64,000 bases of DNA. Source: Candidatus Babeliales bacterium (GTDB taxonomy: Bacteria > Babelota > Babeliae > Babelales > UASB340). Below the pieces are notes generated by a model, which worked only from the letters and a program-made list of their open reading frames with translations, ran no database searches and was not told where the DNA came from. The stretch covers positions 92,806-156,805 of the forward strand of contig JAGLWI010000002.1 in NCBI GenBank assembly GCA_023133515.1. Direction: 5' to 3'. Position numbers and translations under genes: made by a program. Shown here one piece after another: positions 422 to 63,496 of this stretch. The first letter of the stretch is position 1. Each line of letters opens with the position of its first letter.

Positions 422-1507
422 TTATCTTACAAATTTAATTTCAAATACAAGAACAGAACCATTATTCAACCCAATACATAAAAGCCACGGCTTATCTACA
501 TTCCAAGATAAACATCTAACATTACCTTCCAATTTTTCTAGTTTAGTCAAAATTTGTACTTTATCATTATAAGTATTCCATATCTTAACGCAATTTTCAT
601 TTTCACAAAATGTTGCTATTACATGTTCATATTTTGGATTCCAAGATACATGAGTTCTCCCAATATTATTTTTTTTAGAATTACTATGCATAAAAGAATT
701 AAAGCATTCTCCATTTTCACAATTCCATATTTCTATATTTCCATCAGGATAAGAAACTGCTAAAACATCTTTATTTTTATAGTTCCAATTAATATCAATA
801 AATTCAAAATGATTTTTATAATAACAATCGATTAACATTTTTACACATTTTCCATTTTTATAATTGAATATTCCTATTGAACCATCATTAAAAACTGTAG
901 CAAATAAATCTTGATTATTACAATTCCATGCCATTGACATTACATCTCTACGCTGCTTTATCAAATATATTAGTTTAATCATCATGTTATTTTTAATATT
1001 TTTAATGCTCCAAACCATTATATTTCTATTTAATGAATATGAACAAAATAAATTTTCAGAAGGATGTAATAATATATTTTTAACTTTTATAAGATGTAAT
1101 GAATGATTTAACATTTCTTCAACATGGAAATCAAAAACATGGAAATCATAATTCCAAATTTTTAAACGGGAAAAAGAATCAAATGTTATTAATTGATTAT
1201 TTGTACCTGCATACCAAGATAAAAAAACAAACTCACTTTTTTCATTTTCTTCTCCTGATGGTTCTATTTTATAAACTATCTTCTTATTTGTAACATTCCA
1301 AATTTCAATTTTATAATCAAAACCAATAGCTAATAGAATTTCATCATTTTTTTTATTCCATTTCAAAAATCTAATATCAGAATCACGAGATTTTTTATCC
1401 TTTAAAACAAAATAATTTATTCTTTTTATTTTTACACATTTTAAAAAATAAAAATTTGAAAAAATAAACAAAATAAATACTAAACTTGAAATTAAATTTC
1501 TTTTCAT
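422..1507 (-). CDS. Secreted WD40-repeat beta-propeller protein
   Basis: 361 residues. An N-terminal hydrophobic segment (about residues 5-22) is followed at once by a Cys-containing stretch (YFLKCVK), so it is a signal peptide or possibly a lipoprotein signal. At least six imperfect WD40 blades follow, recognisable by units such as NKDVLAVSYPDGNIEIWN, NVRCLSWNVDKP and HVIATFCENENCVKIWN (SWN...IWN spacing about 40-45 residues). Such a propeller would act as a binding platform outside the cytoplasm; no catalytic motif is visible. It is the first gene of a minus-strand pair with the truncated WD40 gene at 1-367, and a decayed third copy lies just upstream at 1576-1782. Paralogues elsewhere in the window make this a family expanded in this genome. 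Confidence 0.85.
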   Translation of the reverse strand: MKRNLISSLVFILFIFSNFYFLKCVKIKRINYFVLKDKKSRDSDIRFLKWNKKNDEILLAIGFDYKIEIWNVTNKKIVYKIEPSGEENEKSEFVFLSWYAGTNNQLITFDSFSRLKIWNYDFHVFDFHVEEMLNHSLHLIKVKNILLHPSENLFCSYSLNRNIMVWSIKNIKNNMMIKLIYLIKQRRDVMSMAWNCNNQDLFATVFNDGSIGIFNYKNGKCVKMLIDCYYKNHFEFIDINWNYKNKDVLAVSYPDGNIEIWNCENGECFNSFMHSNSKKNNIGRTHVSWNPKYEHVIATFCENENCVKIWNTYNDKVQILTKLEKLEGNVRCLSWNVDKPWLLCIGLNNGSVLVFEIKFVR

Positions 1508-25026: not shown

Positions 25027-26154
25027 TTAAACTAATTTTTTTGGTATTTGTTTTTTAAGATTTTCAAAATTAGTAAAAGAATAAGAAAAATCATGAAAAA
25101 TAAATTTCAAATCATTTCCTTCTTTTTTGATATTCAACTCAATGTTATTAGTATCAGAAAAATTAGAATCAATAAAATTTACAATTAATGGAGTAAAAAT
25201 AGAAACTGGAAAAGGATTTAACCCAAACTTTTTTCTGTATAAAAAATTATCTTTTCCCTTCAAAAACCATAATTCATTATGCAATGGACCCTTTTTACCA
25301 ACTTCAATCTCTATTTGTTTTAGTTTTGAAAGGTTCAACGAAAAACGTCTTTTAGAAAAACTATCTTTAGTAGAAATAATATCAACTACTTGAACCGGAT
25401 CTGATTTTGAATAAATATTATAAACATATTTAAAAACGTCAGAATTTATAAAACCACTTGTCTCACTCTGAATAGGGGTTCCAAATAATACCAATTTATC
25501 TATAACAAGCCCCTTTTTTAAAATCTCTTCTGATTTTGAAAGATTTAAAGCAACATTTCCTCCATGACTATGCGCCAAAACATGAATAATCAATTCGATG
25601 TTTGGCATCTTCTTTTTTAATTCCTCTATTTTATCTATCAATTCTTTATATAATCTATTTCCCCATTCTTCTCTTTTTTTTGAATCCAACCTACCATCCC
25701 AACCAAAAGTATAAAAAGAAAATAAAATATTATTATCATTTTCAACATACTTACATAAAAACTTATACAATTTAGCTATAAGCAAATTACGTTCTCCATT
25801 TGTATTATCTTCATTAATTTCCAATAAACCAAAATCACTTATAGGTTGTAGTTTATATATTAATTCGTATCTTAAATTTTTTAAATATTTAGAATAAAAA
25901 CTTTTTTTATCTTGATTTTTTTGATTTTTTAAAGCCTTTTTAAAAACTTTATAAGAAGGATATGGAAGTATTGTCCCATGAATAAAAACGGTTATAATAT
26001 GTTTCTTATGAGATGTATGATTATTTACACAATTATTTTTTTCTTCTAAAGTAAATTTAGTCTTTTTCGGTATTATTACAAGTTTTCCAAGCAATATTAC
26101 CGATGATATAAAAGAAAAAATTATTAAAAATTTTTTGATATTTTTTATCTTCAT
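25027..26154 (-). CDS. Membrane-anchored alpha/beta hydrolase, lipase-like
   Basis: 375 residues. A single N-terminal hydrophobic helix (about 8-30) anchors or exports the protein. The hydrolase core begins with HIITVFIHGTILPYPSY (oxyanion strand with HG), has the nucleophile elbow HVLAHSHGGNVAL (Ser in AHSHGG) and then DKLVLFGTPIQSETSG and YVYNIYSKSDPVQVVD, a lipase-like strand carrying the likely catalytic Asp. The final His is probably in PLHNELWF. A similar nucleophile-to-YSK stretch occurs in the 898-residue protein at 55223. The substrate is unknown. Confidence 0.8.
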   Translation of the reverse strand: MKIKNIKKFLIIFSFISSVILLGKLVIIPKKTKFTLEEKNNCVNNHTSHKKHIITVFIHGTILPYPSYKVFKKALKNQKNQDKKSFYSKYLKNLRYELIYKLQPISDFGLLEINEDNTNGERNLLIAKLYKFLCKYVENDNNILFSFYTFGWDGRLDSKKREEWGNRLYKELIDKIEELKKKMPNIELIIHVLAHSHGGNVALNLSKSEEILKKGLVIDKLVLFGTPIQSETSGFINSDVFKYVYNIYSKSDPVQVVDIISTKDSFSKRRFSLNLSKLKQIEIEVGKKGPLHNELWFLKGKDNFLYRKKFGLNPFPVSIFTPLIVNFIDSNFSDTNNIELNIKKEGNDLKFIFHDFSYSFTNFENLKKQIPKKLV

Positions 26155-29592: not shown

Positions 29593-31242
29593 TCACTCTT
29601 CTTGTATTTGATACGTTTCAAAAATTTCAAAAACACAATCTTTTTTCCAATCTTCTCGTCCAAATCCTGCTTTAAGACTAAGTTGCTGCAAAGTCATTTC
29701 AACATTCCAACCCAAAGATGTTGGAATATTGGGTAAAAATACAGATGATATCCAATCTTTGTTATCATTTTGTTTATTTAATATAATCCCATGTTTTCCC
29801 AACTTTATATCTCCATAACTTTTTACAGTTTTCGGAGGTGTAAGTACTGAAATATCAATTTTAACATCATTAAGCTCTTCCTTTTTAAAAGGACTAAACC
29901 TTTTGTCATTGAATGCAGCCATATCACTCATATTTTGAACTGTTTTATAAAGTGGATCTTGTGAATATATTCTTCCCATACAACCTTGTAAACAACCATT
30001 CTTTGTATGCAAAGTTACAAAAGAACCACCGCTTTGACGTATCCCTTCTCCCAAAATAGGCCATAAAAGAAATTGCGGAATTTTTTCGTTTTCAAGTCTA
30101 AAATAGTTTGATATTGTTCTGCGTGACAATGTTAACAATGATTTTTTTTCATATTCTGTAAGCCTATCTTCCTTTTTCAAATCTTCTATTTTTTGAGATG
30201 TAAAAATTAACCCTAAATAGCTAACACTGTTTGAAATCTGATCATCATCAACATTTTCTAACAAAAGATTGATGTCAATATCAATTTTATCTTTATTATG
30301 CGCCTTTTGAAGCTGAGAAGTAGTATAATAACTTGCCACACGTGTATTTACATTTCCAAAAACATCTTCTTCCAAAAGTTTTAATAGAATTTTTATTGGG
30401 ATTTGCCCACATATAGTAGATCTTTGATTTTTTGTATATTCATCAAAAATTTTGAACGACTTTAAAATTATTGCCTGCAAGAAAACAGAATCCATAAAAC
30501 GTACATTATCTAAAATATTTTTTTTGAAAATTTCATAATTATAAATTTTACCATGATGTGTAAAATCTGAACTTATAACAACTAACGTTTTATCATCAAT
30601 GATATCTTTTAAAGAATCAACTATAGTAGAATAATCCTCGGTTTGAAGAGATCCACATATCAACGGAATAATAGAAAAAGATTCAATTGTTTTCTGCAAA
30701 AAAGGAAGTTGGACTTCTATCGCATGTTCATAACAATGCGTTTCTAAAATATTTTTAAAAATATTTCTTTTTTTTAAAATTTCTATTGATTCATTGTCAA
30801 CTTTTATATTTCCCAAAACTGTTTGATAAATATCATAATCAGGTAAACATATTCCACTGAATGATTTTACATGAGAAGGACATAGAATTATGACACGTTT
30901 AATTTTTTTATTTTTCTCAAATTTTTCTTTATTTTTAAACAAAGTTTGATATGCACTAGCTGCACAAAATCCAGAAAAATAAATTCCCGCATGAGGAACA
31001 ATTAACGCCTTAATACTGCCTGGATCCACAACAACATCAAAATCTTTTTTTGCAATGTCAAAATATATCTTCAAAATACCATCAAGAATATTTTTATCCT
31101 GATAATACCAACCTGTTGAAAGATGCGCCTTGTGAATTATAAGTTTATGATTTTTTATATCTAATTCTTTTGCTTTGAAAAATATTGGAATCAAAAAAAT
31201 AAAAACTAGAAAAAATATAAATTTAACTTTCTTTTTAATCAT
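29593..31242 (-). CDS. Memo-AMMECR1 fusion (AmmeMemoRadiSam proteins B and A) with N-terminal membrane signal
   Basis: 549 residues. A hydrophobic signal or anchor spans about residues 5-23. Residues 35-330 are a Memo-like domain (LIVPHAGIYFSGFCAASAY, ILCPSHVKSFSGICLPD, EHAIEVQLPFLQ, VVISSDFTHHG), related to class III extradiol dioxygenases with His metal ligands. Residues 350-545 are an AMMECR1 domain (GSFVTLHTKNGCLQGCMGRIYSQDPLYKTVQNMSDMAAFNDKRF is its core region). Fusions or clusters of these with a radical SAM protein form the AmmeMemoRadiSam system, whose reaction is not known. No radical SAM gene lies in this window. Confidence 0.88.
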   Translation of the reverse strand: MIKKKVKFIFFLVFIFLIPIFFKAKELDIKNHKLIIHKAHLSTGWYYQDKNILDGILKIYFDIAKKDFDVVVDPGSIKALIVPHAGIYFSGFCAASAYQTLFKNKEKFEKNKKIKRVIILCPSHVKSFSGICLPDYDIYQTVLGNIKVDNESIEILKKRNIFKNILETHCYEHAIEVQLPFLQKTIESFSIIPLICGSLQTEDYSTIVDSLKDIIDDKTLVVISSDFTHHGKIYNYEIFKKNILDNVRFMDSVFLQAIILKSFKIFDEYTKNQRSTICGQIPIKILLKLLEEDVFGNVNTRVASYYTTSQLQKAHNKDKIDIDINLLLENVDDDQISNSVSYLGLIFTSQKIEDLKKEDRLTEYEKKSLLTLSRRTISNYFRLENEKIPQFLLWPILGEGIRQSGGSFVTLHTKNGCLQGCMGRIYSQDPLYKTVQNMSDMAAFNDKRFSPFKKEELNDVKIDISVLTPPKTVKSYGDIKLGKHGIILNKQNDNKDWISSVFLPNIPTSLGWNVEMTLQQLSLKAGFGREDWKKDCVFEIFETYQIQEE

Positions 31243-50290: not shown

Positions 50291-51577
50291 ATGTTATCAG
50301 TTATTACAAGCCTTTTTTATACTATTACATCATCAAAATGGAAACGAAGAATAACTTCTTTAATCCTTTTTTTATTCTTTGTATCATGGTGGAGGATGAA
50401 AACAATATTCGAATTTCCAAATCCAACAGGAAAATATTCTGTAGGCATCATTTCCTATTGGTTAAAAGATTTAAAAAGAAAAGAAGCTCATGCTCTAAAT
50501 GATAATGTTTTTAGAGAATTATTAATTCAAATTTGGTATCCAAGCGATAAAGAAAAAAATAATTCTAATTATCCTTATAACTTAAAAGAACTTTCTTTTA
50601 TGAAAGACTCAATGCAAAAAAATTATTTTTATTATTTTCCACGATTCCTATTCGACTACTTTTTATCTGAGATTTACACACACGCTATTCCAAATCTTAA
50701 ACTTTCCAAATCTCAAGAAAAATATCCTATATTAATTTTTTCACATGGCTATGCAAGTTTAAGTAGTTTTAATTCTACTCAATTAGAAGAACTTGCAAGC
50801 CATGGATACGTTGTTGTGGGAGTCAACCATACATATGATTGTCACGTAACAATATTTCCTGATGGAAGAATTATACCTTTAAGTGATGATTGGAAAAAAG
50901 GAGAAATTCAATATCTATCAAAAGAAATAGATACATGGATAAATGATGTAACTTTTGTCCTTGATGAGTTAGAAAAAATAAATAAAAATGATCCAAAAAA
51001 CATTTTTACTAGAAAATTAAATTTTGACCAGATAGGAATTTTTGGACATTCAATGGGAGGAGCAACAGCAACACAGGTTTGCCGTATAGATAACAGAATA
51101 AAAGCTGGAATAAATATGGACGGTCCCTTGTTTGGAAAAAATCCAACAAAAGTTTTTTCAAAACCTTTCATGTTTCTTTTGGCTCAAAATACTTTAGAAA
51201 AATTAAATAAACCTCTTGATAAAAAAGAATTAGATTATAGAAAAATGTCTCAGGAAGAAGGGCTTTTACTTAAAAAGTTATACCAAGAATATATACAAAA
51301 ACTTTTTTGCAAAATGAAAAAGGACTCCTATTGCATAGTTCTTAAAGGAGCAGGCCATTTTACATTTTCTGATATGCCATTTATCAAAAAAATATCTTTA
51401 TTTTTAAAACATTTTGATTTTGAAATAGGAACAATTGATCCATATAGAGCAATTAATATCACTAACGAATATATTCTTTCATTTTTCAATAAATATTTAA
51501 AAAAAGAAAAAAATCCTCTTTTTGATGGAAATAGAAAATATCCAGAAATGCAAAACCTCCATGGACGTAAAATTTAA
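50291..51577 (+). CDS. Membrane-anchored platelet-activating-factor acetylhydrolase-like esterase
   Basis: 428 residues. A hydrophobic segment at about residues 20-38 anchors or exports it. FPNPTGKYSVGIISYWLKD and LLIQIWYPSDKE, then YPILIFSHGYASLSSFNSTQLEELASHGYVVVGVNHTYD, are typical of the PAF-AH family. The catalytic triad can be placed: Ser254 in FGHSMGGA, Asp277 in INMDGPLFG and His356 in GAGHFTFSD. PAF-AHs remove short or oxidised acyl groups from phospholipids, so it may act on host or own lipids. Start ATG 50291 follows AAAAAAGGTC. Confidence 0.87.
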   Translation: MLSVITSLFYTITSSKWKRRITSLILFLFFVSWWRMKTIFEFPNPTGKYSVGIISYWLKDLKRKEAHALNDNVFRELLIQIWYPSDKEKNNSNYPYNLKELSFMKDSMQKNYFYYFPRFLFDYFLSEIYTHAIPNLKLSKSQEKYPILIFSHGYASLSSFNSTQLEELASHGYVVVGVNHTYDCHVTIFPDGRIIPLSDDWKKGEIQYLSKEIDTWINDVTFVLDELEKINKNDPKNIFTRKLNFDQIGIFGHSMGGATATQVCRIDNRIKAGINMDGPLFGKNPTKVFSKPFMFLLAQNTLEKLNKPLDKKELDYRKMSQEEGLLLKKLYQEYIQKLFCKMKKDSYCIVLKGAGHFTFSDMPFIKKISLFLKHFDFEIGTIDPYRAINITNEYILSFFNKYLKKEKNPLFDGNRKYPEMQNLHGRKI

Positions 51578-53925: not shown

Positions 53926-55167
53926 ATGATTTGCTTGATCAGAAAAGAAAAAGCTAAATGGTTTTTTCTGAAAACATGTTTTTTATTATTATTATCGTTT
54001 TTCGCAACATCACATGTATGCGCAACATTCATAGCATTGGATGAGGCTAATAATTATAACTATAACCAACTCGAATACAATATTTTCTTATTTTCGGACT
54101 ATCACGGAAAAAAGTTAGAAAAGTACGATAAACAACAATTAGAAGCGCTGGAGTATTCGTTGGTAGAAAACCAGAATCAAAAAACAAATCCTAAAGAAAT
54201 GCTTATTTTAGTTGAAGATCCAGCCGACTTATATAAAGATATCAAAGCAAACGTTTTGGAAAAGGGAAATGGTTTATTAATTGGCCTTATTAAAAAATTA
54301 AGATCTCTCACATTAAAAAACACAAAAATCAAAAATTGTGACATTAGAGATGTCTGTGGAAAAGCATGTGGTTTTTTTAATTGGTGTTATCCTCCTGCTT
54401 CTTTTGCTTATTCTCCAAATAAAATTATTAAGGAAAAAAAAATAAATCCTTATTCCTTTTCATTTGCTGATCTTTTTGAAGAATTAAATAAACTTTTAAA
54501 TGAGAGTAAAAAGATCAAGAAAAATTTAGAAACAGATCAATGTCAAAATGTGTCATCAGTAATAGATGTCTATTTGTTGATTACCAATGTTTTTGAAAAG
54601 AAATTGCAGCAAGCTCAAATTCTATATGAAAAATTACTTTTAAAACTAAAAGAATCTAATATTAATTCTGATGAAAGTATTTTAGATAAAGCAACACAAT
54701 TTTTTTTGGATGATCTTACATTTTACGATTATGAAAATAATTACACCAAAAAAATAAATAATTTGAAAAAAGATTTAAAAACATTTGCTCAGGTATATCC
54801 AAATTTTTCTCATCAAGAATGGAAAACACTAAAAAAACAATACGAAAGAGAAAGAGATAATCTTATAGAAAACATTCTAACTAATAATTCACATTATACT
54901 AACGAAAGCATCTTACATACAAATCGATACACAATATATGAACCATTATACAAATTAACAAATATCCTACTTGAGCTTTTTCTTTTGTATCAAATAATTA
55001 CAAATATTTCTAAAAAAATTATTGTTTTTGCGGGAGCTAAACATACAAAATCTATAGTAGAAATGATGGACTACCTAGGAATTAAGTTTAAAAGCTTTGG
55101 AGAGGATAATACAAAAAATCCAACTCTGGCTCTTGATAAAAAATATATTGATAAAATTTATTCCTGA
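53926..55167 (+). CDS. Secreted protein, possibly Tiki/TraB/EreA-superfamily-like
   Basis: 413 residues. A signal peptide ends near residue 34 (LLLLSFFATSHVCA). Three spaced motifs stand out: NIFLFSDYHGKK (about 49-60), EMLILVEDPADLY (about 87-99) and KKIIVFAGAKHTKSIVEMMDYLG (about 368-390), with a long charged helical insert between the last two. A strand ending in a His turn, a strand ending in E-D-P and a strand ending in GAxH is the pattern of the Tiki/TraB/ChaN/EreA hydrolase-like superfamily, but this assignment is tentative. The start lacks a clear ribosome-binding site. Confidence 0.75.
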   Translation: MICLIRKEKAKWFFLKTCFLLLLSFFATSHVCATFIALDEANNYNYNQLEYNIFLFSDYHGKKLEKYDKQQLEALEYSLVENQNQKTNPKEMLILVEDPADLYKDIKANVLEKGNGLLIGLIKKLRSLTLKNTKIKNCDIRDVCGKACGFFNWCYPPASFAYSPNKIIKEKKINPYSFSFADLFEELNKLLNESKKIKKNLETDQCQNVSSVIDVYLLITNVFEKKLQQAQILYEKLLLKLKESNINSDESILDKATQFFLDDLTFYDYENNYTKKINNLKKDLKTFAQVYPNFSHQEWKTLKKQYERERDNLIENILTNNSHYTNESILHTNRYTIYEPLYKLTNILLELFLLYQIITNISKKIIVFAGAKHTKSIVEMMDYLGIKFKSFGEDNTKNPTLALDKKYIDKIYS

Positions 55168-55222: not shown

Positions 55223-57919
55223 CTATTTTTTACTGAGCAATGATTCTAAAGATTTGTATGCATTATTTATCTCGCCAAACTTTAAGGTGAAATACTCCTT
55301 TTCGTATTCCTCTTTGTACTTGTCTGGATGAAACTTAGCACTAAGTTTTTTATATGTTTTTGTAAGCTCTTTAAGCGTATTAGGCCTTTTTTTTAACTCT
55401 AATACAACAAGATCTATTGTATATTTATATTTTTTCCAAAAATCCTTTTGTTGATTTTTCAATATTCCTATCTCAGCGCTAAATTTTTGTAAAATGCTCT
55501 TCATAACAAATAACATAATTGAATAATCAATCTTATAATCTTCTTTCTTCAAAATTTCTAACAGCTTTTCTAATATATTCAATACTTTTAACCTATGAAT
55601 CGAGATTCTTAGCATCTTTTTAAAATAATTTTCTTCATTTGAGAATTTATTTTTACCAAACTTTTTATAATCATATTCTGCTAACCTCTGCCATACATTC
55701 ATGCAATCTATTGCCTCTTCTATCAACTTTTTAATTTTATTGTTTTTCTTGTTATAAAAAAGAGAAGATATAAATTCTAAATCTGTTAAAATAACTTCTC
55801 GACCATATCTGTTTTCAGCATAATCGTATTTAAATTTTAACCATTCATAAAACGTTCTAAATCCTTTGCCTTTTTCCCCAAACTTTTTTCTTATCTCTCC
55901 AAGCATAAACTTAATATTATATTTTTCTTTTCCGATAACATCAACTTTAGACACCTTTCTAAAATATGTCTGTTCTCTTTTTGGAACCCTCTCTTTTCTA
56001 AAGTTTGGAACATCATCAGGAGCATCTAAAGTGGGATCTATATATTTGGCCCATTTCTTTTTTAGTTGAGATTTTATCAAATTTAGTCCGTGGTAAGGAA
56101 CCTCGTATTTATAAATTCCATTATGCTCGAATTTTATAAATAATGATTCCCCTTTTTCAATTTTACCAAAAAGAATATGTCGCTTTTTGGCAGGAAGCAA
56201 AGACAAGGCAGAACTATATTGTGTAAAACGAATATCGATACCAAAATGCTGCATTTTTTCTTTGCCTTCAAATTCAAAGTGAGATGATTTTCTTGGATAA
56301 GCAAATGGATTTGAACTGATTGTTCCTCTCAATATACCTGTTCCTTCAAATGCAGTTGTCCCAAATTTTTTCACATAAGTATGCAAGAATTCAAAAATTC
56401 TTGAAAATTTTTTATTTCTAAAAATGAAAGTTCCCTCATAAAACCCCTGATCTTTATTTATAGCCTCCGCAAAAAAATACCACATCAGAGCAATTATGTT
56501 ATTAAGATACTCTGGACGATTATATCTTTGACAATGCTGGACAAATCCTTGATAATCTTTTGGCTTTGAATAAGTAAGAAAATAAGCAAATTTTCCTCCC
56601 TTATTAATCAGGCTTTTTATATGCTCAAAATCAAAATCTGGATAATTTTCGGTAAAATACTCTTTTAACTTTTTTTCATTGATGATAATCTTAGGTCTAG
56701 ATTCATATAACTCGCTTTTTCTGGCTATTTTATAGCGTTCTTTAATGCTATCTATATCCAAAGTCAATCCTTTACCAAAAAACCCTGTAGCAACCTCACC
56801 CCATGTTTTACCAATTTTTAAATTTAAAAGATTCATATAACTTCTACGGCTTACATTTAGTTCTTTAGTAAACAATTCTTTAAATTTATTTTTCATTGAA
56901 CTCAGAAAAGAAAGACAAGTTTGTATCTTATCACCGGTAGGAAAACATATTGTCTCTCTCTTCAAAAATACCGGCCTGTTTATTGCTACCAAAGGTTCGA
57001 TTTTTTCTTTTCCTAGTTTTGATATAAAATCAAAGTTCAATTTATAATCTCTCTCAATCACTTTTAAAAGAGTAGGAATTTGTAATAAAACTTTTTTTCT
57101 AAGCATCTTCTCGTCAGAAACATCTACCAATTTTCCCTCTTTTTCCCCTTCTATCTTTTCTATTTGTAAAACACGTATATTTTTTACCGGCATCCCAATA
57201 TCTTCTTTTATATATCTTTCAAGATTAAAAGTTTTTTGTTGTTGATATTTTCTCTCAAAGATCTCCTCCCCTTTCCAAAAACGCCCGGCCAAATCCCATA
57301 CCTTAGTTGGAGCTGCATACTTACTATAAACATTAAATAACTTATTAAATTTTTGCGGTTTAAATCTCTCTGCTTTTTCTGCTACCCTAGGATTAAAAAA
57401 TATTATCGTGTCTAAATAATGTCCATCTTTAAGTTTTCTAGATGCACTGGTTACAACATTTGCACTTTCTCCAATCGCAAAAGTCATAACTGCAAAGCGA
57501 TCTGGGCCTCCTTTAGCATTTACTGTATCAATAATTTTTTGTGCTAAATCTTTCCCTGAAGGCTCTCTTTTCCCACTCCATTCACATAAAAAAAGGTCTA
57601 TATCCTTGAGCTCTGGCAAAGGTAACTGCTTTTTTTCCTCGTAAGGCGGACGAGCAATGCGAGTTTCTTCAACCTCTTTGACTCTTTTTTTTGCTACAAC
57701 TTCTAAGACAAATTGTTCTACAAATTGTTTTAGTACATCAGCACCAACTATCTCTTCTCCTTTTTTGTAGACATAGAAAAAGATCACGTTTTTCTCAAGC
57801 GAAATCCTACTTGGTTGCTTGAATGTTTGTTGCACTGTTATTACAGAATGAACATCGAACATGTAAAAAATAGATATGAAAAGAAAAACACTTATTTTCC
57901 AAAAAAATAATAATTTCAT
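55223..57919 (-). CDS. Large exported protein with lipase-like N-terminal part and C-terminal J domain
   Basis: 898 residues from ATG 57919, where a signal peptide starts (MKLLFFWKISVFLFISIFYM); an earlier ATG at 57964 would put 15 residues before it. The N-terminal 200 residues look like an alpha/beta hydrolase: FAVMTFAIGESANVVTSA (GxSxN nucleophile elbow), then LDTIIFFNPRV and FNVYSKYAAPTKVWDL, paralleling the hydrolase at 25027. The middle part has no recognised family. The last 60 residues are a J domain: LKELTKTYKKLSAKFHPDKYKEEY with the HPD motif (H864) and FGEINNAYKSLESLL. J domains stimulate Hsp70 ATPase; an exported one could act on host Hsp70. Confidence 0.8.
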   Translation of the reverse strand: MKLLFFWKISVFLFISIFYMFDVHSVITVQQTFKQPSRISLEKNVIFFYVYKKGEEIVGADVLKQFVEQFVLEVVAKKRVKEVEETRIARPPYEEKKQLPLPELKDIDLFLCEWSGKREPSGKDLAQKIIDTVNAKGGPDRFAVMTFAIGESANVVTSASRKLKDGHYLDTIIFFNPRVAEKAERFKPQKFNKLFNVYSKYAAPTKVWDLAGRFWKGEEIFERKYQQQKTFNLERYIKEDIGMPVKNIRVLQIEKIEGEKEGKLVDVSDEKMLRKKVLLQIPTLLKVIERDYKLNFDFISKLGKEKIEPLVAINRPVFLKRETICFPTGDKIQTCLSFLSSMKNKFKELFTKELNVSRRSYMNLLNLKIGKTWGEVATGFFGKGLTLDIDSIKERYKIARKSELYESRPKIIINEKKLKEYFTENYPDFDFEHIKSLINKGGKFAYFLTYSKPKDYQGFVQHCQRYNRPEYLNNIIALMWYFFAEAINKDQGFYEGTFIFRNKKFSRIFEFLHTYVKKFGTTAFEGTGILRGTISSNPFAYPRKSSHFEFEGKEKMQHFGIDIRFTQYSSALSLLPAKKRHILFGKIEKGESLFIKFEHNGIYKYEVPYHGLNLIKSQLKKKWAKYIDPTLDAPDDVPNFRKERVPKREQTYFRKVSKVDVIGKEKYNIKFMLGEIRKKFGEKGKGFRTFYEWLKFKYDYAENRYGREVILTDLEFISSLFYNKKNNKIKKLIEEAIDCMNVWQRLAEYDYKKFGKNKFSNEENYFKKMLRISIHRLKVLNILEKLLEILKKEDYKIDYSIMLFVMKSILQKFSAEIGILKNQQKDFWKKYKYTIDLVVLELKKRPNTLKELTKTYKKLSAKFHPDKYKEEYEKEYFTLKFGEINNAYKSLESLLSKK

Positions 57920-58249: not shown

Positions 58250-58732
58250 ATGGTGGCAAAAAAATTATCTGAATTCTTAAAAAACATCATAGACAAAAAT
58301 AACCGTTGGAAAATAAAATTATTAAAAAATTGGGACAAAATCATAGGATCCTTTAAAAATAATGTCATCATCCTAAAAATAGAAAGAAATCTTCTAGTCT
58401 TAGGAGTATCTCATCCAACATTATCACATGAATTATTTATGTTATCTGATATTTTAAAAAAAAAGATTAATTCATTGTTTGATCATGAACAAATAAAATA
58501 TATTAGATTTAGAATACTTGATATAAAACCCAAAAAAAACATTCTAAAAAAAATAAAAAAAGAAAAAACAGAAGGAAAAAAAAGTTATACAAAAAAATTT
58601 TGTTTAAACAAAGTAGAATATTTATCTTTGAAAAAAATACAAGATCAAGAATTAAAAGAGTGTTTAAAAAATTTTTATCTATCATGCAAAAGGGAGAAAA
58701 GTGAGAAAAAAAAATTTTATAAAAACAAATAA
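58250..58732 (+). CDS. dciA: DciA-like replicative helicase loader (DUF721)
   Basis: 160 residues. The N-terminal 95 residues match the DciA/DUF721 fold: LKNWDKIIGSFKNNVIILKIERNLLVLGVSHPTLSHELFMLSDILKKKINSLF followed by KYIRFRILD. DciA loads or regulates DnaB helicase in bacteria that lack DnaC/DnaI. The C-terminal 65 residues are Lys-rich and unique. It overlaps the following TPR gene by 32 bases and heads the dciA-TPR-murG set. Confidence 0.8.
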   Translation: MVAKKLSEFLKNIIDKNNRWKIKLLKNWDKIIGSFKNNVIILKIERNLLVLGVSHPTLSHELFMLSDILKKKINSLFDHEQIKYIRFRILDIKPKKNILKKIKKEKTEGKKSYTKKFCLNKVEYLSLKKIQDQELKECLKNFYLSCKREKSEKKKFYKNK

Positions 58733-60365
58733 GAGTTTTTATTTATTCTTTGTTATTACAATCTTTTTCATTACCACTAATAGTATTTGCAAAAAAAGTA
58801 GAATTGAATTAATTGAACAACACAACTCACAAAATGATCAAAAATATCTTTTATATTCAAATGCATGTTATCATCATTTCTCTGGAAAAATTGACAAATC
58901 TCTAAAACTATTTCAAAAGAGTTTTTCCAACAATTTTTCTGTCTATATTTACGAAGGTTTTTTCAGATTACTATTTGACATTGGCCAATTTACAAAAATT
59001 ATTGATCTTGAAAAAAAAGTAAAAGGTGTTTTTGACAATAATTTGGATATACAACTTATTTTTGCAAAAGCCTTTTTTGGAGCAAACATAATTGATCAGG
59101 CCGAAAAACTATTCGAAAAACTTGTTAAAAAATACCCATATAATGAACCATGCACTTATTATATGACAATCTGTTATATCAAAAACAATAAAATTGATAA
59201 AGCTTTACAATTCATAGAAAAATGTATTAAAAATCCATCTTTAAGAAGCAAACATTTTCTTTTCTATTTTCTTGCATCACGTATCCATCTACAGTCTGGA
59301 AACAATCAAAAAGCACTTGAATTAATCAAACACAGTCTAAATCTATATCCACGTTTTGAAAAAGGATGGTTATTTAAGGCATTACTCGAAGAACAATTAG
59401 GAAGAGTTAAAAACGCAATCTCTGGATACCAAAAATTTTTAGATATCGTAGGAAGAGATCTTATTGTAGAAAAACAGTTGATAAATCTTTTATACTCTTC
59501 TGGAGAATTTAATCAAGCTGCTGATCTTTTAAGAAAAATAAAAGCAAATACAACAGAACACTTTTCTGATCTTGCACTTCTTGAATGGAAAGCAGGAAAT
59601 TATAAAGAAGCTTTAAAAAATATAAATAAGTCTTTGCAAAAAAATCCTCAGTTTAGAAAATCAAAACTTCTTAAAATAGAAGTATTACTATCACAAAATA
59701 AAAAAGATGAAGTATTAGAATTTTTAAAAAATTGGATATCAAGAGAACCACAAGATATTTCTATAATTCGAATACTTCTTTTGCTCAACAAAAATCAAAA
59801 TCCCATTTCAAAAGACTCCATATTAAATGTCTTAGAAAATATTTCCAAAAAAATTAAAAACCCAACTTTAGGAATTTTATCTGCACTCATAGATCTTTAT
59901 CTTGAAAAAGAAGAACACAAAAAAGTTATATTAACTTGTCAAAAACTTTTAATGATTACAAATGACGAAGAAATAAAATCCAAAATACTATTTCAAATTG
60001 GTTACACATATTTTGTAAAAAATGAATACGATAATGCTAAAACAGCTTTAAAAAAAGCAATCAAAACGAAAAATCCATATCTTTCAGCTTTTAATCTTCT
60101 TGCATACATAGAAAAAGATTTGGTTTATGCAGAAAAATTAGCAAGAATTGCTGTAAATGCACAGCCCAATTGTTATTATTATTTAGATACATTAGGGTTT
60201 GTTTTGTTAAAACAGAAAAAAATAAATGAGGCTACTAGTAATTTTAAAAAAGCTTTACGTATTGCAAAGTCACAATTAGATATCAAAGATGAAAACCTTA
60301 TTTTAAAAGAACAAATAAAAGAAATAAATCAACATTTAAAAAAAGCTGAATTATTTAATAAATAA
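58701..60365 (+). CDS. Exported TPR-repeat protein
   Basis: 554 residues from GTG 58701, set by AAGGGAG (58690-58696). A hydrophobic signal or anchor spans about 12-29. At least ten TPR-type helix pairs follow (LLYSNACYHHFSGKIDKSLKLFQKSFS, IQLIFAKAFFGANIIDQAEKLFEKLV, YYMTICYIKNNKIDKALQFIEKCI, FQIGYTYFVKNEYDNAKTALKKAIK, YYYLDTLGFVLLKQKKINEATSNFKKAL). It is a scaffold probably facing the periplasm; the position next to murG hints at envelope assembly. Confidence 0.88.
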   Translation: MRKKNFIKTNKSFYLFFVITIFFITTNSICKKSRIELIEQHNSQNDQKYLLYSNACYHHFSGKIDKSLKLFQKSFSNNFSVYIYEGFFRLLFDIGQFTKIIDLEKKVKGVFDNNLDIQLIFAKAFFGANIIDQAEKLFEKLVKKYPYNEPCTYYMTICYIKNNKIDKALQFIEKCIKNPSLRSKHFLFYFLASRIHLQSGNNQKALELIKHSLNLYPRFEKGWLFKALLEEQLGRVKNAISGYQKFLDIVGRDLIVEKQLINLLYSSGEFNQAADLLRKIKANTTEHFSDLALLEWKAGNYKEALKNINKSLQKNPQFRKSKLLKIEVLLSQNKKDEVLEFLKNWISREPQDISIIRILLLLNKNQNPISKDSILNVLENISKKIKNPTLGILSALIDLYLEKEEHKKVILTCQKLLMITNDEEIKSKILFQIGYTYFVKNEYDNAKTALKKAIKTKNPYLSAFNLLAYIEKDLVYAEKLARIAVNAQPNCYYYLDTLGFVLLKQKKINEATSNFKKALRIAKSQLDIKDENLILKEQIKEINQHLKKAELFNK

Positions 60366-61461: not shown

Positions 61462-62451
61462 TTAAATTATGACTTTCCAAACAAAAATATTTCCTGCGAT
61501 ATCTCCACTTGCCAAAAAATCTCCTTTTTTACTAAAAGATAAGCAAGTAATCTTACTTTTATGTTGTTTCAAAATATTAACACATTCTAATATATTAATA
61601 TCCCATATTCTAATTTCAGTATCATCTGATCCACTTACCAAAATTCTAGAAATACTAGGATGAAAAGATAAACAAGAAACACTAGACTTGTGTCCTTTTA
61701 AAATACCAATACATTTTTCTCTTTTTATAAGATTCCAAAGTCTTATTGTGTTATCTCTTGAACCACTAGCTAAAACAGTTGGATAAAAAGGATTCCAAAA
61801 AATACACAAAATTTTATCAAAATGACCAGCTAAAGAAAAAATACACTTATCAGTTTTAAAATTCCATATTTCTATTATGTTATTTAAGCATCCACATGCT
61901 AAATTGTTATCATATAGGTCATGCCATTTCAAACAAGAAATATTACTTTTTTTTAGCTGTAAAAGATAATATCCTTTAAGTTTATTACCATCTTTTTCCC
62001 AAACTTCAATTTTATTAGAACTATACAAACATCTAGAAAAAAAAGAAGGATTCAAATAATTAAAAGAAAAACAATAATTATGATTAGTATTTGGTAAAGA
62101 AAAAATATCACCTTCAAAAGAATTTATTTTAAGAAACAAAACATATTCATCTGAATGAGCGATACTAACTAAATCATCTTTACATGATAAAGAAACAACT
62201 TTAGATTGAGAATTCTCGTATATAATGTCATATTTTGTTTTTGAAATATTCCATCTTAACAACTGTCCTGAAGAACATCCGACTAACAAAATATTTGAAT
62301 CTTTAGGATTAAATTCTAAACAAGTAACAGATGAATAGTTTGGAATTTTCAAAGTTTTATATAATTTAATATCTAAAGAATTTAAATCTTTAGAAAATGA
62401 AAGAAAAAAAATTATAAAAACTAAAAATTTCAACGAAAAAGAAAATTTCAT
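61462..62451 (-). CDS. Secreted WD40-repeat beta-propeller protein
   Basis: 329 residues from ATG 62451, five bases after the upstream stop; a signal peptide (MKFSFSLKFLVFIIFFLSFSKDLNS) starts here. Seven blades are visible, the last three nearly canonical: ILCIFWNPFYPTVLASGSRDNTIRLWN, VSCLSFHPSISRILVSGSDDTEIRIWD and ITCLSFSKKGDFLASGDIAGNIFVWK, each with the GH...SxD...W pattern. It is the most eukaryote-like of the family in this window. It follows the 62456 WD40 gene as a tandem pair. Confidence 0.9.
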   Translation of the reverse strand: MKFSFSLKFLVFIIFFLSFSKDLNSLDIKLYKTLKIPNYSSVTCLEFNPKDSNILLVGCSSGQLLRWNISKTKYDIIYENSQSKVVSLSCKDDLVSIAHSDEYVLFLKINSFEGDIFSLPNTNHNYCFSFNYLNPSFFSRCLYSSNKIEVWEKDGNKLKGYYLLQLKKSNISCLKWHDLYDNNLACGCLNNIIEIWNFKTDKCIFSLAGHFDKILCIFWNPFYPTVLASGSRDNTIRLWNLIKREKCIGILKGHKSSVSCLSFHPSISRILVSGSDDTEIRIWDINILECVNILKQHKSKITCLSFSKKGDFLASGDIAGNIFVWKVII

Positions 62452-62455
62452 AAAC

Positions 62456-63496
62456 CTATTCATTAATAATATTCCAAATAATAACATGTCCATTTTCAAA
62501 ACCAACAGCTAAATATTTTCCATTTTTACTCCATTTAATTGAATATGTACTATATTTACATGGCTTATTAATAATATATTCATCCCCTGTTTTATAATTC
62601 CATATCATAACCATGCCATTTTTATATCCAATCGCTAATAAACTTGAATTCCAAGGACACCACTCCAAATCCCTAGGAATAAAAATTTTTTTATAATCAT
62701 AGTTATAACGATAGCTATTGGAATTAATACTTATACAATTTAATTCATTGTTTTTTTCAATATCATATACTATAACATTCCCATCTTTACAATTTACAGC
62801 ATAACCTACAGCTAAAATATTATTAGGATTACAAACAGACCATGCTAATCCAACAATTTCTATAGAATTAGAACAATTAAATTTTCTAGAAGTCTTTTCT
62901 TTTAAATCATTAATTAAAATATTTCCATCATCAGCAATCTTTGCAAACATGAATGTATGACTTCCGGCAAAAGGCTCATTTCCATAAAACTCAAATATCA
63001 CCTTTCCTGTTTTTACTTCAAATACTTTCCAAGAATATGTTTTATATTCATATCCAATAGCATACAATCCATTTTTCAACCAATCAATCCTATGGATAAA
63101 CACTCCAGGCCAATTTATAATATCTTTTAATTTTCTTTTATTTTTAATATCAAAAATCTTAACAACCTCTTTTTTATCATGATAATCACCTACTGCTAAA
63201 ATATTTTTATTGAAAGGATTCCAAGACAAACATAAACATTCAGAAATATTAAAATCAGAAAAATCAATACAACAATTTTTATCTAAATTAAATATTTTGA
63301 AATCTTTTTTAAAAAAATTTCCAAATATTAAAAGACTATCGTCACAATTCCAAGCCATCAATATTGGTGAATTACCACATTTAAATTTTTTAAATATCTT
63401 AAAATTTAAACCTTTTAAAGAAACAAAAATAAAAAAGAAAAATAACGGAAAAATAAATTTTATTAAAAACTTAGAACGAACTGAAAAATATTTCAT
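62456..63496 (-). CDS. Secreted WD40-repeat beta-propeller protein
   Basis: 346 residues. The signal peptide covers residues 8-30 (SKFLIKFIFPLFFFFIFVSLKG). Blades include PILMAWNCDDSLLIFGNFFKKDFKIFN, CLCLSWNPFNKNILAVGDYHDKKEVVKIFD, RDLEWCPWNSSLLAIGYKNGMVMIWNY and YSIKWSKNGKYLAVGFENGHVIIWN. The middle blades are degenerate. It is the first gene of a tandem pair with 61462-62451, and resembles the pair at the left edge of the window. Confidence 0.88.
   Translation of the reverse strand: MKYFSVRSKFLIKFIFPLFFFFIFVSLKGLNFKIFKKFKCGNSPILMAWNCDDSLLIFGNFFKKDFKIFNLDKNCCIDFSDFNISECLCLSWNPFNKNILAVGDYHDKKEVVKIFDIKNKRKLKDIINWPGVFIHRIDWLKNGLYAIGYEYKTYSWKVFEVKTGKVIFEFYGNEPFAGSHTFMFAKIADDGNILINDLKEKTSRKFNCSNSIEIVGLAWSVCNPNNILAVGYAVNCKDGNVIVYDIEKNNELNCISINSNSYRYNYDYKKIFIPRDLEWCPWNSSLLAIGYKNGMVMIWNYKTGDEYIINKPCKYSTYSIKWSKNGKYLAVGFENGHVIIWNIINE

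What the first reader, a model, noticed from the sequence alone, without database searches (positions are those of the whole stretch)
55223..57919. Exported giant protein joining a lipase-like domain to a J domain
A signal peptide, a GESAN nucleophile elbow followed by an NP strand and a YSK strand (as in the hydrolase at 25027), and a C-terminal J domain with intact HPD occur in one 898-residue protein. J domains are normally cytoplasmic partners of DnaK. An exported one, in a genome with other eukaryote-like secreted proteins, could recruit host Hsp70.
Basis: partly seen in the sequence, partly recalled or inferred. Interest (0 to 1): 0.7.

Follow-up and report, generated by a model that had tools for sequence, protein, structure and literature searches.

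The report
Exported J-domain protein, dead hydrolase
A bacterium of a protist-parasite phylum encodes an export-tagged protein that carries a chaperone-recruiting J domain behind what looks like a dead enzyme domain, and its relatives carry dozens of unrelated export-tagged proteins with the same kind of tag, which suggests they borrow the host's Hsp70 chaperones.

Summary
The frame is real: 898 aa, minus strand, a signal-peptide-like start and a C-terminal J domain over Pfam's cut-off with HPD intact. The 'lipase-like' part is probably related to the PGAP1-like hydrolases of this phylum (one lies at 25027), but catalysis looks lost: Ser aligns to Gly150, Asp to Ala202, and no His lies between 168 and 432, so GESAN is probably no working nucleophile elbow. 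J domains outside canonical DnaJ are common in this phylum: of 121 usable frames in 101 genomes, 98 begin signal-peptide-like against 0 of 33 DnaJ, though random frames score high too (140 of 242). The 98 fall into 72 sequence groups; some carry ankyrin repeats. No Hsp70 other than DnaK and short MreB-like matches was listed. Best reading: a modular exported effector that recruits host Hsp70. Export and Hsp70 binding are inferred, not shown. Known analogues: HopI1 and exported Plasmodium J proteins.

The parts
55223..57919 (-). whole gene, 898 aa, ATG at 57919
57845..57919 (-). residues 1-25, signal-peptide-like segment (K2, K8, then a hydrophobic run; cleavage point not determined)
   Evidence: passes the hydropathy heuristic (2.55) and the stricter one with a cleavage-like motif; no SignalP available
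57290..57583 (-). residues 113-210, core of a probably alpha/beta-hydrolase-derived domain that looks catalytically dead
   Evidence: BLASTP to P0002 E 1e-5 (0 of 1000 shuffles as good) and to a relative's hydrolase-like protein L267 E 2e-5, which the N-terminal profile had itself found (E 2.5e-7); a family profile without L267 does not single it out
57458..57472 (-). residues 150-154, GESAN, at the nucleophile elbow; Gly150 aligns to the nucleophile Ser
57308..57334 (-). residues 196-204, NVYSKYAAP; Ala202 aligns to the conserved Asp of YSxxD
55754..56614 (-). residues 436-722, domain so far seen only in Dependentiae, invariant G441 F493 G496 R543 H547 K596 E598 G601 H610 R704 G706 E708 in 17 sequences
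   Evidence: no convincing Pfam, NCBIfam or PDB sequence match
55406..55753 (-). residues 723-838, predicted helical linker
   Evidence: secondary structure of a low-confidence model
55244..55405 (-). residues 839-892, J domain (Pfam PF00226)
   Evidence: 31.3 bits, cut-off 27.8; 33.9 bits in the genome search
55322..55330 (-). residues 864-866, HPD motif
58701..60365 (+). nearby TPR gene with a signal-peptide-like start; a relative lies beside the closest homologue in Noda2021
   Evidence: 31% identity over 249 aligned positions, E 2e-35; TPR by Pfam; strict heuristic passed

Best explanation
It is a modular protein exported by Sec and probably passed over the outer membrane by a secretin-based (type II) machine into the protist host. 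There its C-terminal J domain binds and stimulates host Hsp70 through HPD, while the N-terminal pseudo-hydrolase and the middle domain bind or modify a host target, so that Hsp70 activity is brought to that target. Shown here by sequence: frame, J domain, HPD, conserved middle domain, signal-peptide-like start, phylum-wide recurrence. Probable: hydrolase ancestry with loss of catalytic residues. Inferred: secretion beyond the periplasm, host Hsp70 as partner, any target.
For: J domain over cut-off with HPD. Signal-peptide-like start; 14 of the 16 other middle-domain proteins of alignment A1 also pass the strict test. Own genome: DnaK is the only full Hsp70 match, the other being a partial match in a 350-aa frame. 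Recurrence: 98 of 121 accessory J frames signal-peptide-like in 55 genomes, HPD in 85 of 98; 72 sequence groups; of 90 scanned, 7 carry ankyrin repeats and 1 an LRR, and no DnaJ C-terminal, zinc-finger or DjlA-type family appears. Three secretin matches in the genome. Precedents: HopI1 binds and stimulates plant Hsp70 by its J domain (PMC8150971, passages read); exported P. falciparum J protein PFA66 needs HPD, and its authors favour a human Hsp70 (PMC8544838, passages read). Described members of the phylum live in protists (PMC6561590 and PMC4378268, passages).
Against: No experiment shows export or Hsp70 binding. The signal-peptide heuristics have a high background: loose, 140 of 242 random frames, 43 of 69 frames next to J genes and 21 of 38 window frames; strict, 110 of 241 random frames. 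Accessory J frames of 200 aa or more give 92 of 109 and 74 of 109, so the excess is modest. The closest relative, in Noda2021, lacks the J domain, so conservation of the J domain in this lineage could not be tested. The J score is modest. Full-length AlphaFold model pLDDT 43, J region 34-40. Hydrolase ancestry is not certain: hhalign probability 42%, and the 27-sequence family profile ranks P0001 only 4th of 264 frames at 3.5 bits, with the Noda2021 relative not among the matches listed. The genome is 84.55% complete, so an exported Hsp70 could be missing.
Confidence: 0.48

Rival explanations
1. The J domain works inside the bacterium: it recruits cytoplasmic DnaK to its own precursor and keeps the long protein unfolded until SecA exports it. 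No host partner is involved.
For: DnaK and DnaJ are present; SecA is encoded in the window; a J domain anywhere in a precursor could do this, as seen at N-terminal, middle and C-terminal places in relatives (28, 29 and 41 of 98).
Against: 7 of 90 exported-looking J proteins also carry ankyrin repeats, which papers on this phylum link to host manipulation (PMC6561590, passages). Here the J domain is made last. Both points are indirect.
Confidence: 0.2
2. The protein stays in the periplasm or outer membrane and the J domain is a relic or a plain protein-binding hairpin without Hsp70.
For: Only a Sec-type signal is seen; no proof of passage over the outer membrane; a family of 9 relatives has a J-like domain without HPD, so relics exist in this phylum.
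Against: HPD is intact here and in 85 of 98 signal-peptide-like accessory J frames; H, P and D are three of the four columns kept at 90% or more in 90 of them.
Confidence: 0.18
3. One reading: an active secreted lipase carrying a J domain.
For: Likeness of residues 113-210 to hydrolases; Ser152 lies close to the elbow.
Against: Ser aligns to Gly150, Asp to Ala202 and no His lies between 168 and 432, whereas 27 of 27 aligned members of the 25027 family keep S196, D252 and H292.
Confidence: 0.06
4. The N-terminal hydrophobic run is a membrane anchor, so the protein sits on the bacterial surface or in the periplasm facing outwards.
For: The run is long and strongly hydrophobic; no cleavage site was determined; no second membrane segment.
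Against: The strict heuristic finds a cleavage-like motif, which is weak evidence.
Confidence: 0.08

Closest known systems
HopI1 of Pseudomonas syringae
   Same: bacterial protein with a C-terminal J domain; as an effector it binds host Hsp70 and stimulates its ATPase (PMC8150971, passages)
   Different: type III effector of plants; here a Sec-type signal, a pseudo-hydrolase and an unrelated middle domain, in a protist-associated phylum; common descent not tested
Exported J-domain proteins of Plasmodium falciparum (PFA66 and others, 19 in the predicted exportome)
   Same: expanded set of exported J proteins acting in the host cell; HPD needed (PMC8544838, passages)
   Different: a eukaryotic parasite that has an Hsp70 of its own for this (PfHSP70-X); no exported Hsp70 was listed in Dependentiae
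The three DnaJ-domain proteins specific to Babela massiliensis
   Same: same phylum; extra J proteins already noted (PMC4378268, section 13 read)
   Different: that section treats them as part of a chaperone excess, tentatively tied to cell division, and does not discuss their export (the figure is not held)
PGAP1-like hydrolases of Dependentiae, such as P0002 at 25027
   Same: likeness over about 100 aa of the core
   Different: the aligned relatives keep Ser, Asp and His (27 of 27) and the HGT His (26 of 27); P0001 does not
Ca. Dependentiae bacterium Noda2021, 906-aa protein (L092:4438-7155)
   Same: shares the N-terminal and middle domains, 29% identity over residues 119-752, and a related TPR gene nearby
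   Different: no J domain

Membership tests
J-domain proteins (Pfam PF00226) | profile match over the curated cut-off | tested here: met
   31.3 bits against 27.8
J-domain proteins (Pfam PF00226) | HPD tripeptide between helices II and III | tested here: met
   864-866
J-domain proteins (Pfam PF00226) | helical hairpin in the structure | tested here: inconclusive
   helices 848-861 and 877-896 flank HPD, but pLDDT is 34-40
J-domain proteins (Pfam PF00226) | stimulates Hsp70 ATPase | not testable with these tools
   needs an assay
Canonical DnaJ (type I) | zinc-finger and C-terminal substrate domains | tested here: not met
   no such Pfam family at E up to 1; NCBIfam DnaJ models far below their cut-offs
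Alpha/beta-hydrolase, PGAP1-like | Pfam match over cut-off | tested here: not met
   no hydrolase family at E up to 1
Alpha/beta-hydrolase, PGAP1-like | sequence relatedness to members | tested here: inconclusive
   for: BLASTP to P0002 E 1e-5, 0 of 1000 shuffles as good, the N-terminal profile's only other find in 101 genomes is a hydrolase-like frame (E 2.5e-7). Against: hhalign 42%; family profile without that find, rank 4 of 264, 3.5 bits; rank 2 with it is partly circular. I lean to yes
Alpha/beta-hydrolase, PGAP1-like | Ser-Asp-His triad | tested here: not met
   Gly150, Ala202, no His in 168-432; 27 of 27 relatives keep all three
Alpha/beta-hydrolase, PGAP1-like | alpha/beta-hydrolase fold in the structure | tested here: inconclusive
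   strand 141-147, helix 152-158, strand 167-174 fit, but pLDDT is about 35-38
HopI1-type J effectors | delivered into the host cell | not testable with these tools
   only a signal-peptide-like start was seen
HopI1-type J effectors | binds host Hsp70 | not testable with these tools
   needs an assay
HopI1-type J effectors | common descent with HopI1 | not tested
   HopI1 was not fetched

The most novel reading that the evidence does not exclude
Dependentiae use the J domain as a portable tag, put onto dozens of unrelated exported proteins much as they use ankyrin repeats, so that host Hsp70 serves as a common engine for their effectors. It might refold them after secretion, pull them over host membranes, or turn them into substrate-specific chaperones. 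This protein is one case, built on a dead hydrolase plus a phylum-specific domain.
Probability: 0.3. Interest if true: 0.8.

Novelty: new variant of a known kind. Interest (0 to 1): 0.57.

Why it matters
If true, a whole phylum of mostly uncultured protist parasites has converged on hijacking the host's Hsp70 with a set of exported co-chaperones, as a plant-pathogen effector and malaria parasites do. It turns the unexplained excess of chaperones noted in Babela into a testable host-interaction hypothesis, gives a simple marker (signal peptide plus J domain) for finding effectors among otherwise unrecognisable secreted proteins, and adds a conserved domain of unknown function to study.

Tried and rejected
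Full-length AlphaFold model (6 sequences): pLDDT 43, unusable. Middle-domain model: pLDDT 64, pTM 0.66; Foldseek against PDB gave nothing under E 0.7, the VIA second look nothing over Z 3.9, so no fold is assigned. The viral library gave one borderline match, an uncharacterised 397-aa protein of Chrysochromulina ericina virus (E 1.7e-3, probability 0.99, but TM about 0.3 and rmsd 13.4). I could not test it by sequence: three viral-contig scans found no relative, and tblastn in the phage collection none.

One of 17 middle-domain members matched phrog_4541 at E 2.8e-4; not followed, probably chance. Pfam and NCBIfam scans of the 17 proteins at E up to 0.5 gave, J models apart, only scattered single-member matches. 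PDB profiles gave three matches at E 1 or worse and none.

Hydrolase profile: I first took P0001's second rank of 264 as support, but that profile included L267, which P0001's own profile had found. Without L267 P0001 ranks 4th at 3.5 bits, among decoys. I therefore lowered the ancestry claim to probable and the best explanation from 0.50 to 0.48.

The idea that the neighbour P0003 (53926-55167) is related to two genes beside the Noda2021 homologue: one was compared and pairwise BLASTP fails, the other was not; only likeness by eye, dropped. P0003 also fails the strict signal-peptide test.

Enrichment of signal peptides in J proteins: the loose test looked strong, but random frames score 58% on it. 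The strict test gives 74 of 109 against 110 of 241, and without further membrane segments 61 of 87 against 79 of 161, p 0.002. The claim rests on absolute numbers and on DnaJ being 0 of 33 and 0 of 35, not on a large enrichment. A first DnaJ control (1 of 31) used wrong positions for some loci and was replaced.

Rows left out: 7 of 128 accessory J matches had no usable start or were under 60 aa. One further match at the cut-off (27.8 bits, G068), those that reach it only with neighbours, and those below it were not fetched. Of the 98 signal-peptide-like frames, 9 over 760 aa were left out of the Pfam scan, but P0001 was added back, hence 90 of 98. L023 and L028 (middle-domain hits, cut or without the N-terminus) are not in alignment A1.

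Full report
What is there. The minus-strand frame 55223-57919 encodes 898 residues from an ATG. The genome (1.03 Mb, 13 contigs, 84.55% complete) belongs to the Dependentiae: G082, a genome of the same order, has the contig length (1,222,284) of AP025250.1, Candidatus Dependentiae bacterium Noda2021, which a named-collection search returned with the same gene. Members of this phylum described in print are parasites of protists (PMC6561590 and PMC4378268, passages read).

The J domain. Pfam DnaJ matches residues 839-892 with 31.3 bits against a curated cut-off of 27.8. The genome search finds only one other J match, the canonical DnaJ on another contig. HPD is at 864-866. By phmmer the nearest solved chains are J domains named DnaJ homolog subfamily A member 1 and C member 5, then bacterial DnaJ, all weak (best E 0.0065), so origin from a eukaryote or a bacterium cannot be told. 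The AlphaFold model has helices at 848-861 and 877-896 on either side of HPD, as a J hairpin would, but at pLDDT 34-40 this counts for little.

The N-terminal part. Residues 114-210 align with the PGAP1-like protein at 25027 (BLASTP E 1e-5 for a single comparison; 0 of 1000 shuffles reach its score). A profile of the N-terminal parts of P0001 and its Noda2021 relative, run over 101 genomes, found one further frame, L267 (E 2.5e-7), whose protein has hydrolase-like motifs and weak sub-cut-off Pfam hydrolase matches; it aligns with residues 113-199 (E 2e-5). Other tests are weaker: profile-profile probability 42%, P 0.00026; the 27-sequence family profile ranks P0001 only 4th of 264 frames at 3.5 bits, and 2nd at 11.6 bits once L267 is added, which is partly circular. 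I take hydrolase ancestry as probable. In 27 of 27 aligned members of the 25027 family S196, D252 and H292 are kept, and H59 in 26; I read the first three as the catalytic triad from motif and order (recalled knowledge of the fold). In P0001 both BLASTP alignments run without a gap through AHSHGGNV and AIGESANV, so the Ser falls on Gly150, not on the Ser of GESAN. Asp252 falls on Ala202, and P0001 has no His between 168 and 432. A two-residue shift would bring Ser152 to the elbow, but acid and His would still be missing. The domain is most likely a pseudo-hydrolase, perhaps kept for binding.

The middle domain. Residues 436-722 are what most relatives share. A profile of 17 sequences finds it in 27 of 101 genomes of the phylum, own genome included, in up to five copies. 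G441, F493, G496, R543, H547, K596, E598, G601, H610, R704, G706 and E708 are invariant in the 17, and Y541, S545, G560, P576, E643 and P646 nearly so. Such a set suggests an active or binding site (inference). Pfam, NCBIfam and PDB sequences give no convincing match, and the viral-contig and phage collections no relative. The model (pLDDT 64, pTM 0.66) matched no solved fold convincingly. One giant-virus protein is a borderline structural match and remains open. Of the 16 other proteins in alignment A1, 14 pass the strict signal-peptide test. Of those 17 proteins only P0001 matches DnaJ.

Setting. In Noda2021 the 906-aa relative lies between two further middle-domain genes, and a relative of the window's TPR gene lies to one side (31% identity, E 2e-35). 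In the window that TPR gene is at 58701, with a DciA-like gene between it and the J gene. So the place is probably the same locus (inference), and the J domain was gained here or lost there.

The wider pattern. I listed the J matches in the 101 held Dependentiae genomes. Setting aside one canonical DnaJ per genome, I took 128 matches over Pfam's cut-off; 121 lie in a frame with a start and at least 60 aa, 121 different proteins. By a loose signal-peptide heuristic 98 of 121 pass, in 55 genomes; HPD is exact in 85 of 98. Nine of the 13 without HPD form one family, eight of 682-768 aa and one of 361 aa. The J domain is C-terminal in 41, N-terminal in 28 and internal in 29. Canonical DnaJ does not pass: 0 of 33 and 0 of 35 (strict test). 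Controls matter here: random frames from 20 stretches of 12 genomes pass the loose test in 140 of 242 cases, and 92 of 109 accessory J frames of at least 200 aa do (p 8e-7); frames next to J genes pass in 43 of 69. With a stricter test that gives a background of 110 of 241, close to the 44% of proteins with signal sequences reported for Chromulinavorax destructans (PMC6561590, passages), 74 of 109 pass. So J proteins here are mostly exported by this measure, in a phylum where much is exported anyway. With the J domain masked, the 98 fall into 72 groups, 63 of them single. In an alignment of 90 of them only four columns are kept at 90% or more, three of them H, P and D. All 90 match DnaJ in Pfam, 7 also ankyrin repeats and 1 an LRR; no DnaJ C-terminal, zinc-finger or DjlA-type family appears.

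Partner. An exported J domain needs an Hsp70. The own genome has DnaK and a partial match in a 350-aa frame, probably MreB. In 101 genomes the listed Hsp70 matches are DnaK-sized frames, fragments of such, and short partial matches of that second kind (two genomes show two full frames; the tail of the list was not shown). Of 11 DnaK frames fetched, 0 pass the strict signal-peptide test. No Hsp70 with an export signal is apparent. Three secretin matches leave a type II-like route open; B. massiliensis is reported to have type II as its only secretion system (PMC4378268, passages).

How it most likely works. Sec export, passage to the host, J domain engages host Hsp70, and the two other domains bind or act on a target. 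The first step is suggested by sequence; the rest is inference from anatomy, recurrence and precedents: HopI1 (PMC8150971, passages) and exported malaria J proteins (PMC8544838, passages). The main rival is that the J domain recruits the bacterium's own DnaK to the precursor before export.

Known or new. A J-domain effector that recruits host Hsp70 is a known kind. Three DnaJ-domain proteins specific to B. massiliensis were noted in 2015 as part of a chaperone excess linked tentatively to cell division (PMC4378268, section 13 read). 'DnaJ' does not occur in the main text of PMC6561590 or PMC12172432 (term search). Searches for Dependentiae with DnaJ, Babeliae with DnaJ domain, TM6 with J domain, and J or DnaJ domain with effector and intracellular or endosymbiont terms listed no paper that by title discusses an exported J repertoire; the library holds only open-licence papers. 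What seems new is the scale and modularity in this phylum, the probable pseudo-hydrolase, and the middle domain.

Noticed in passing
window 53926-55167 (+): 413-aa protein without any Pfam match, convergent with the J protein; likeness by eye to two genes beside the Noda2021 homologue, but BLASTP with one of them fails and the other was not compared; fails the strict signal-peptide test.
   Followed up: partly
window 422-1507, 61465-62505, 62459-63496 (all -): Three WD40/beta-propeller proteins of eukaryotic look.
   Followed up: no
window 50291-51574 (+): Platelet-activating-factor acetylhydrolase type II-like protein, well over cut-off.
   Followed up: no
window 29596-31242 (-): Memo and AMMECR1 domains fused in one protein.
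   Followed up: no
L152, L168, L173, L195, L200, L208, L210, L212, L216: Nine-member family of exported-looking proteins (eight of 682-768 aa, one of 361) with a J-like domain that has lost HPD, in nine genomes.
   Followed up: partly
middle-domain model (window 55655-56692), viral structure library: Borderline structural match of the middle domain to an uncharacterised protein of Chrysochromulina ericina virus.
   Followed up: partly
phylum-wide, P0002 family: Relatives of the PGAP1-like protein at 25027 are found in 99 of 101 Dependentiae genomes, often several per genome.
   Followed up: no
window 55223-57919: The mature J protein is strongly basic, net charge about +57 over 873 residues; no control for the AT-rich composition was run.
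   Followed up: no
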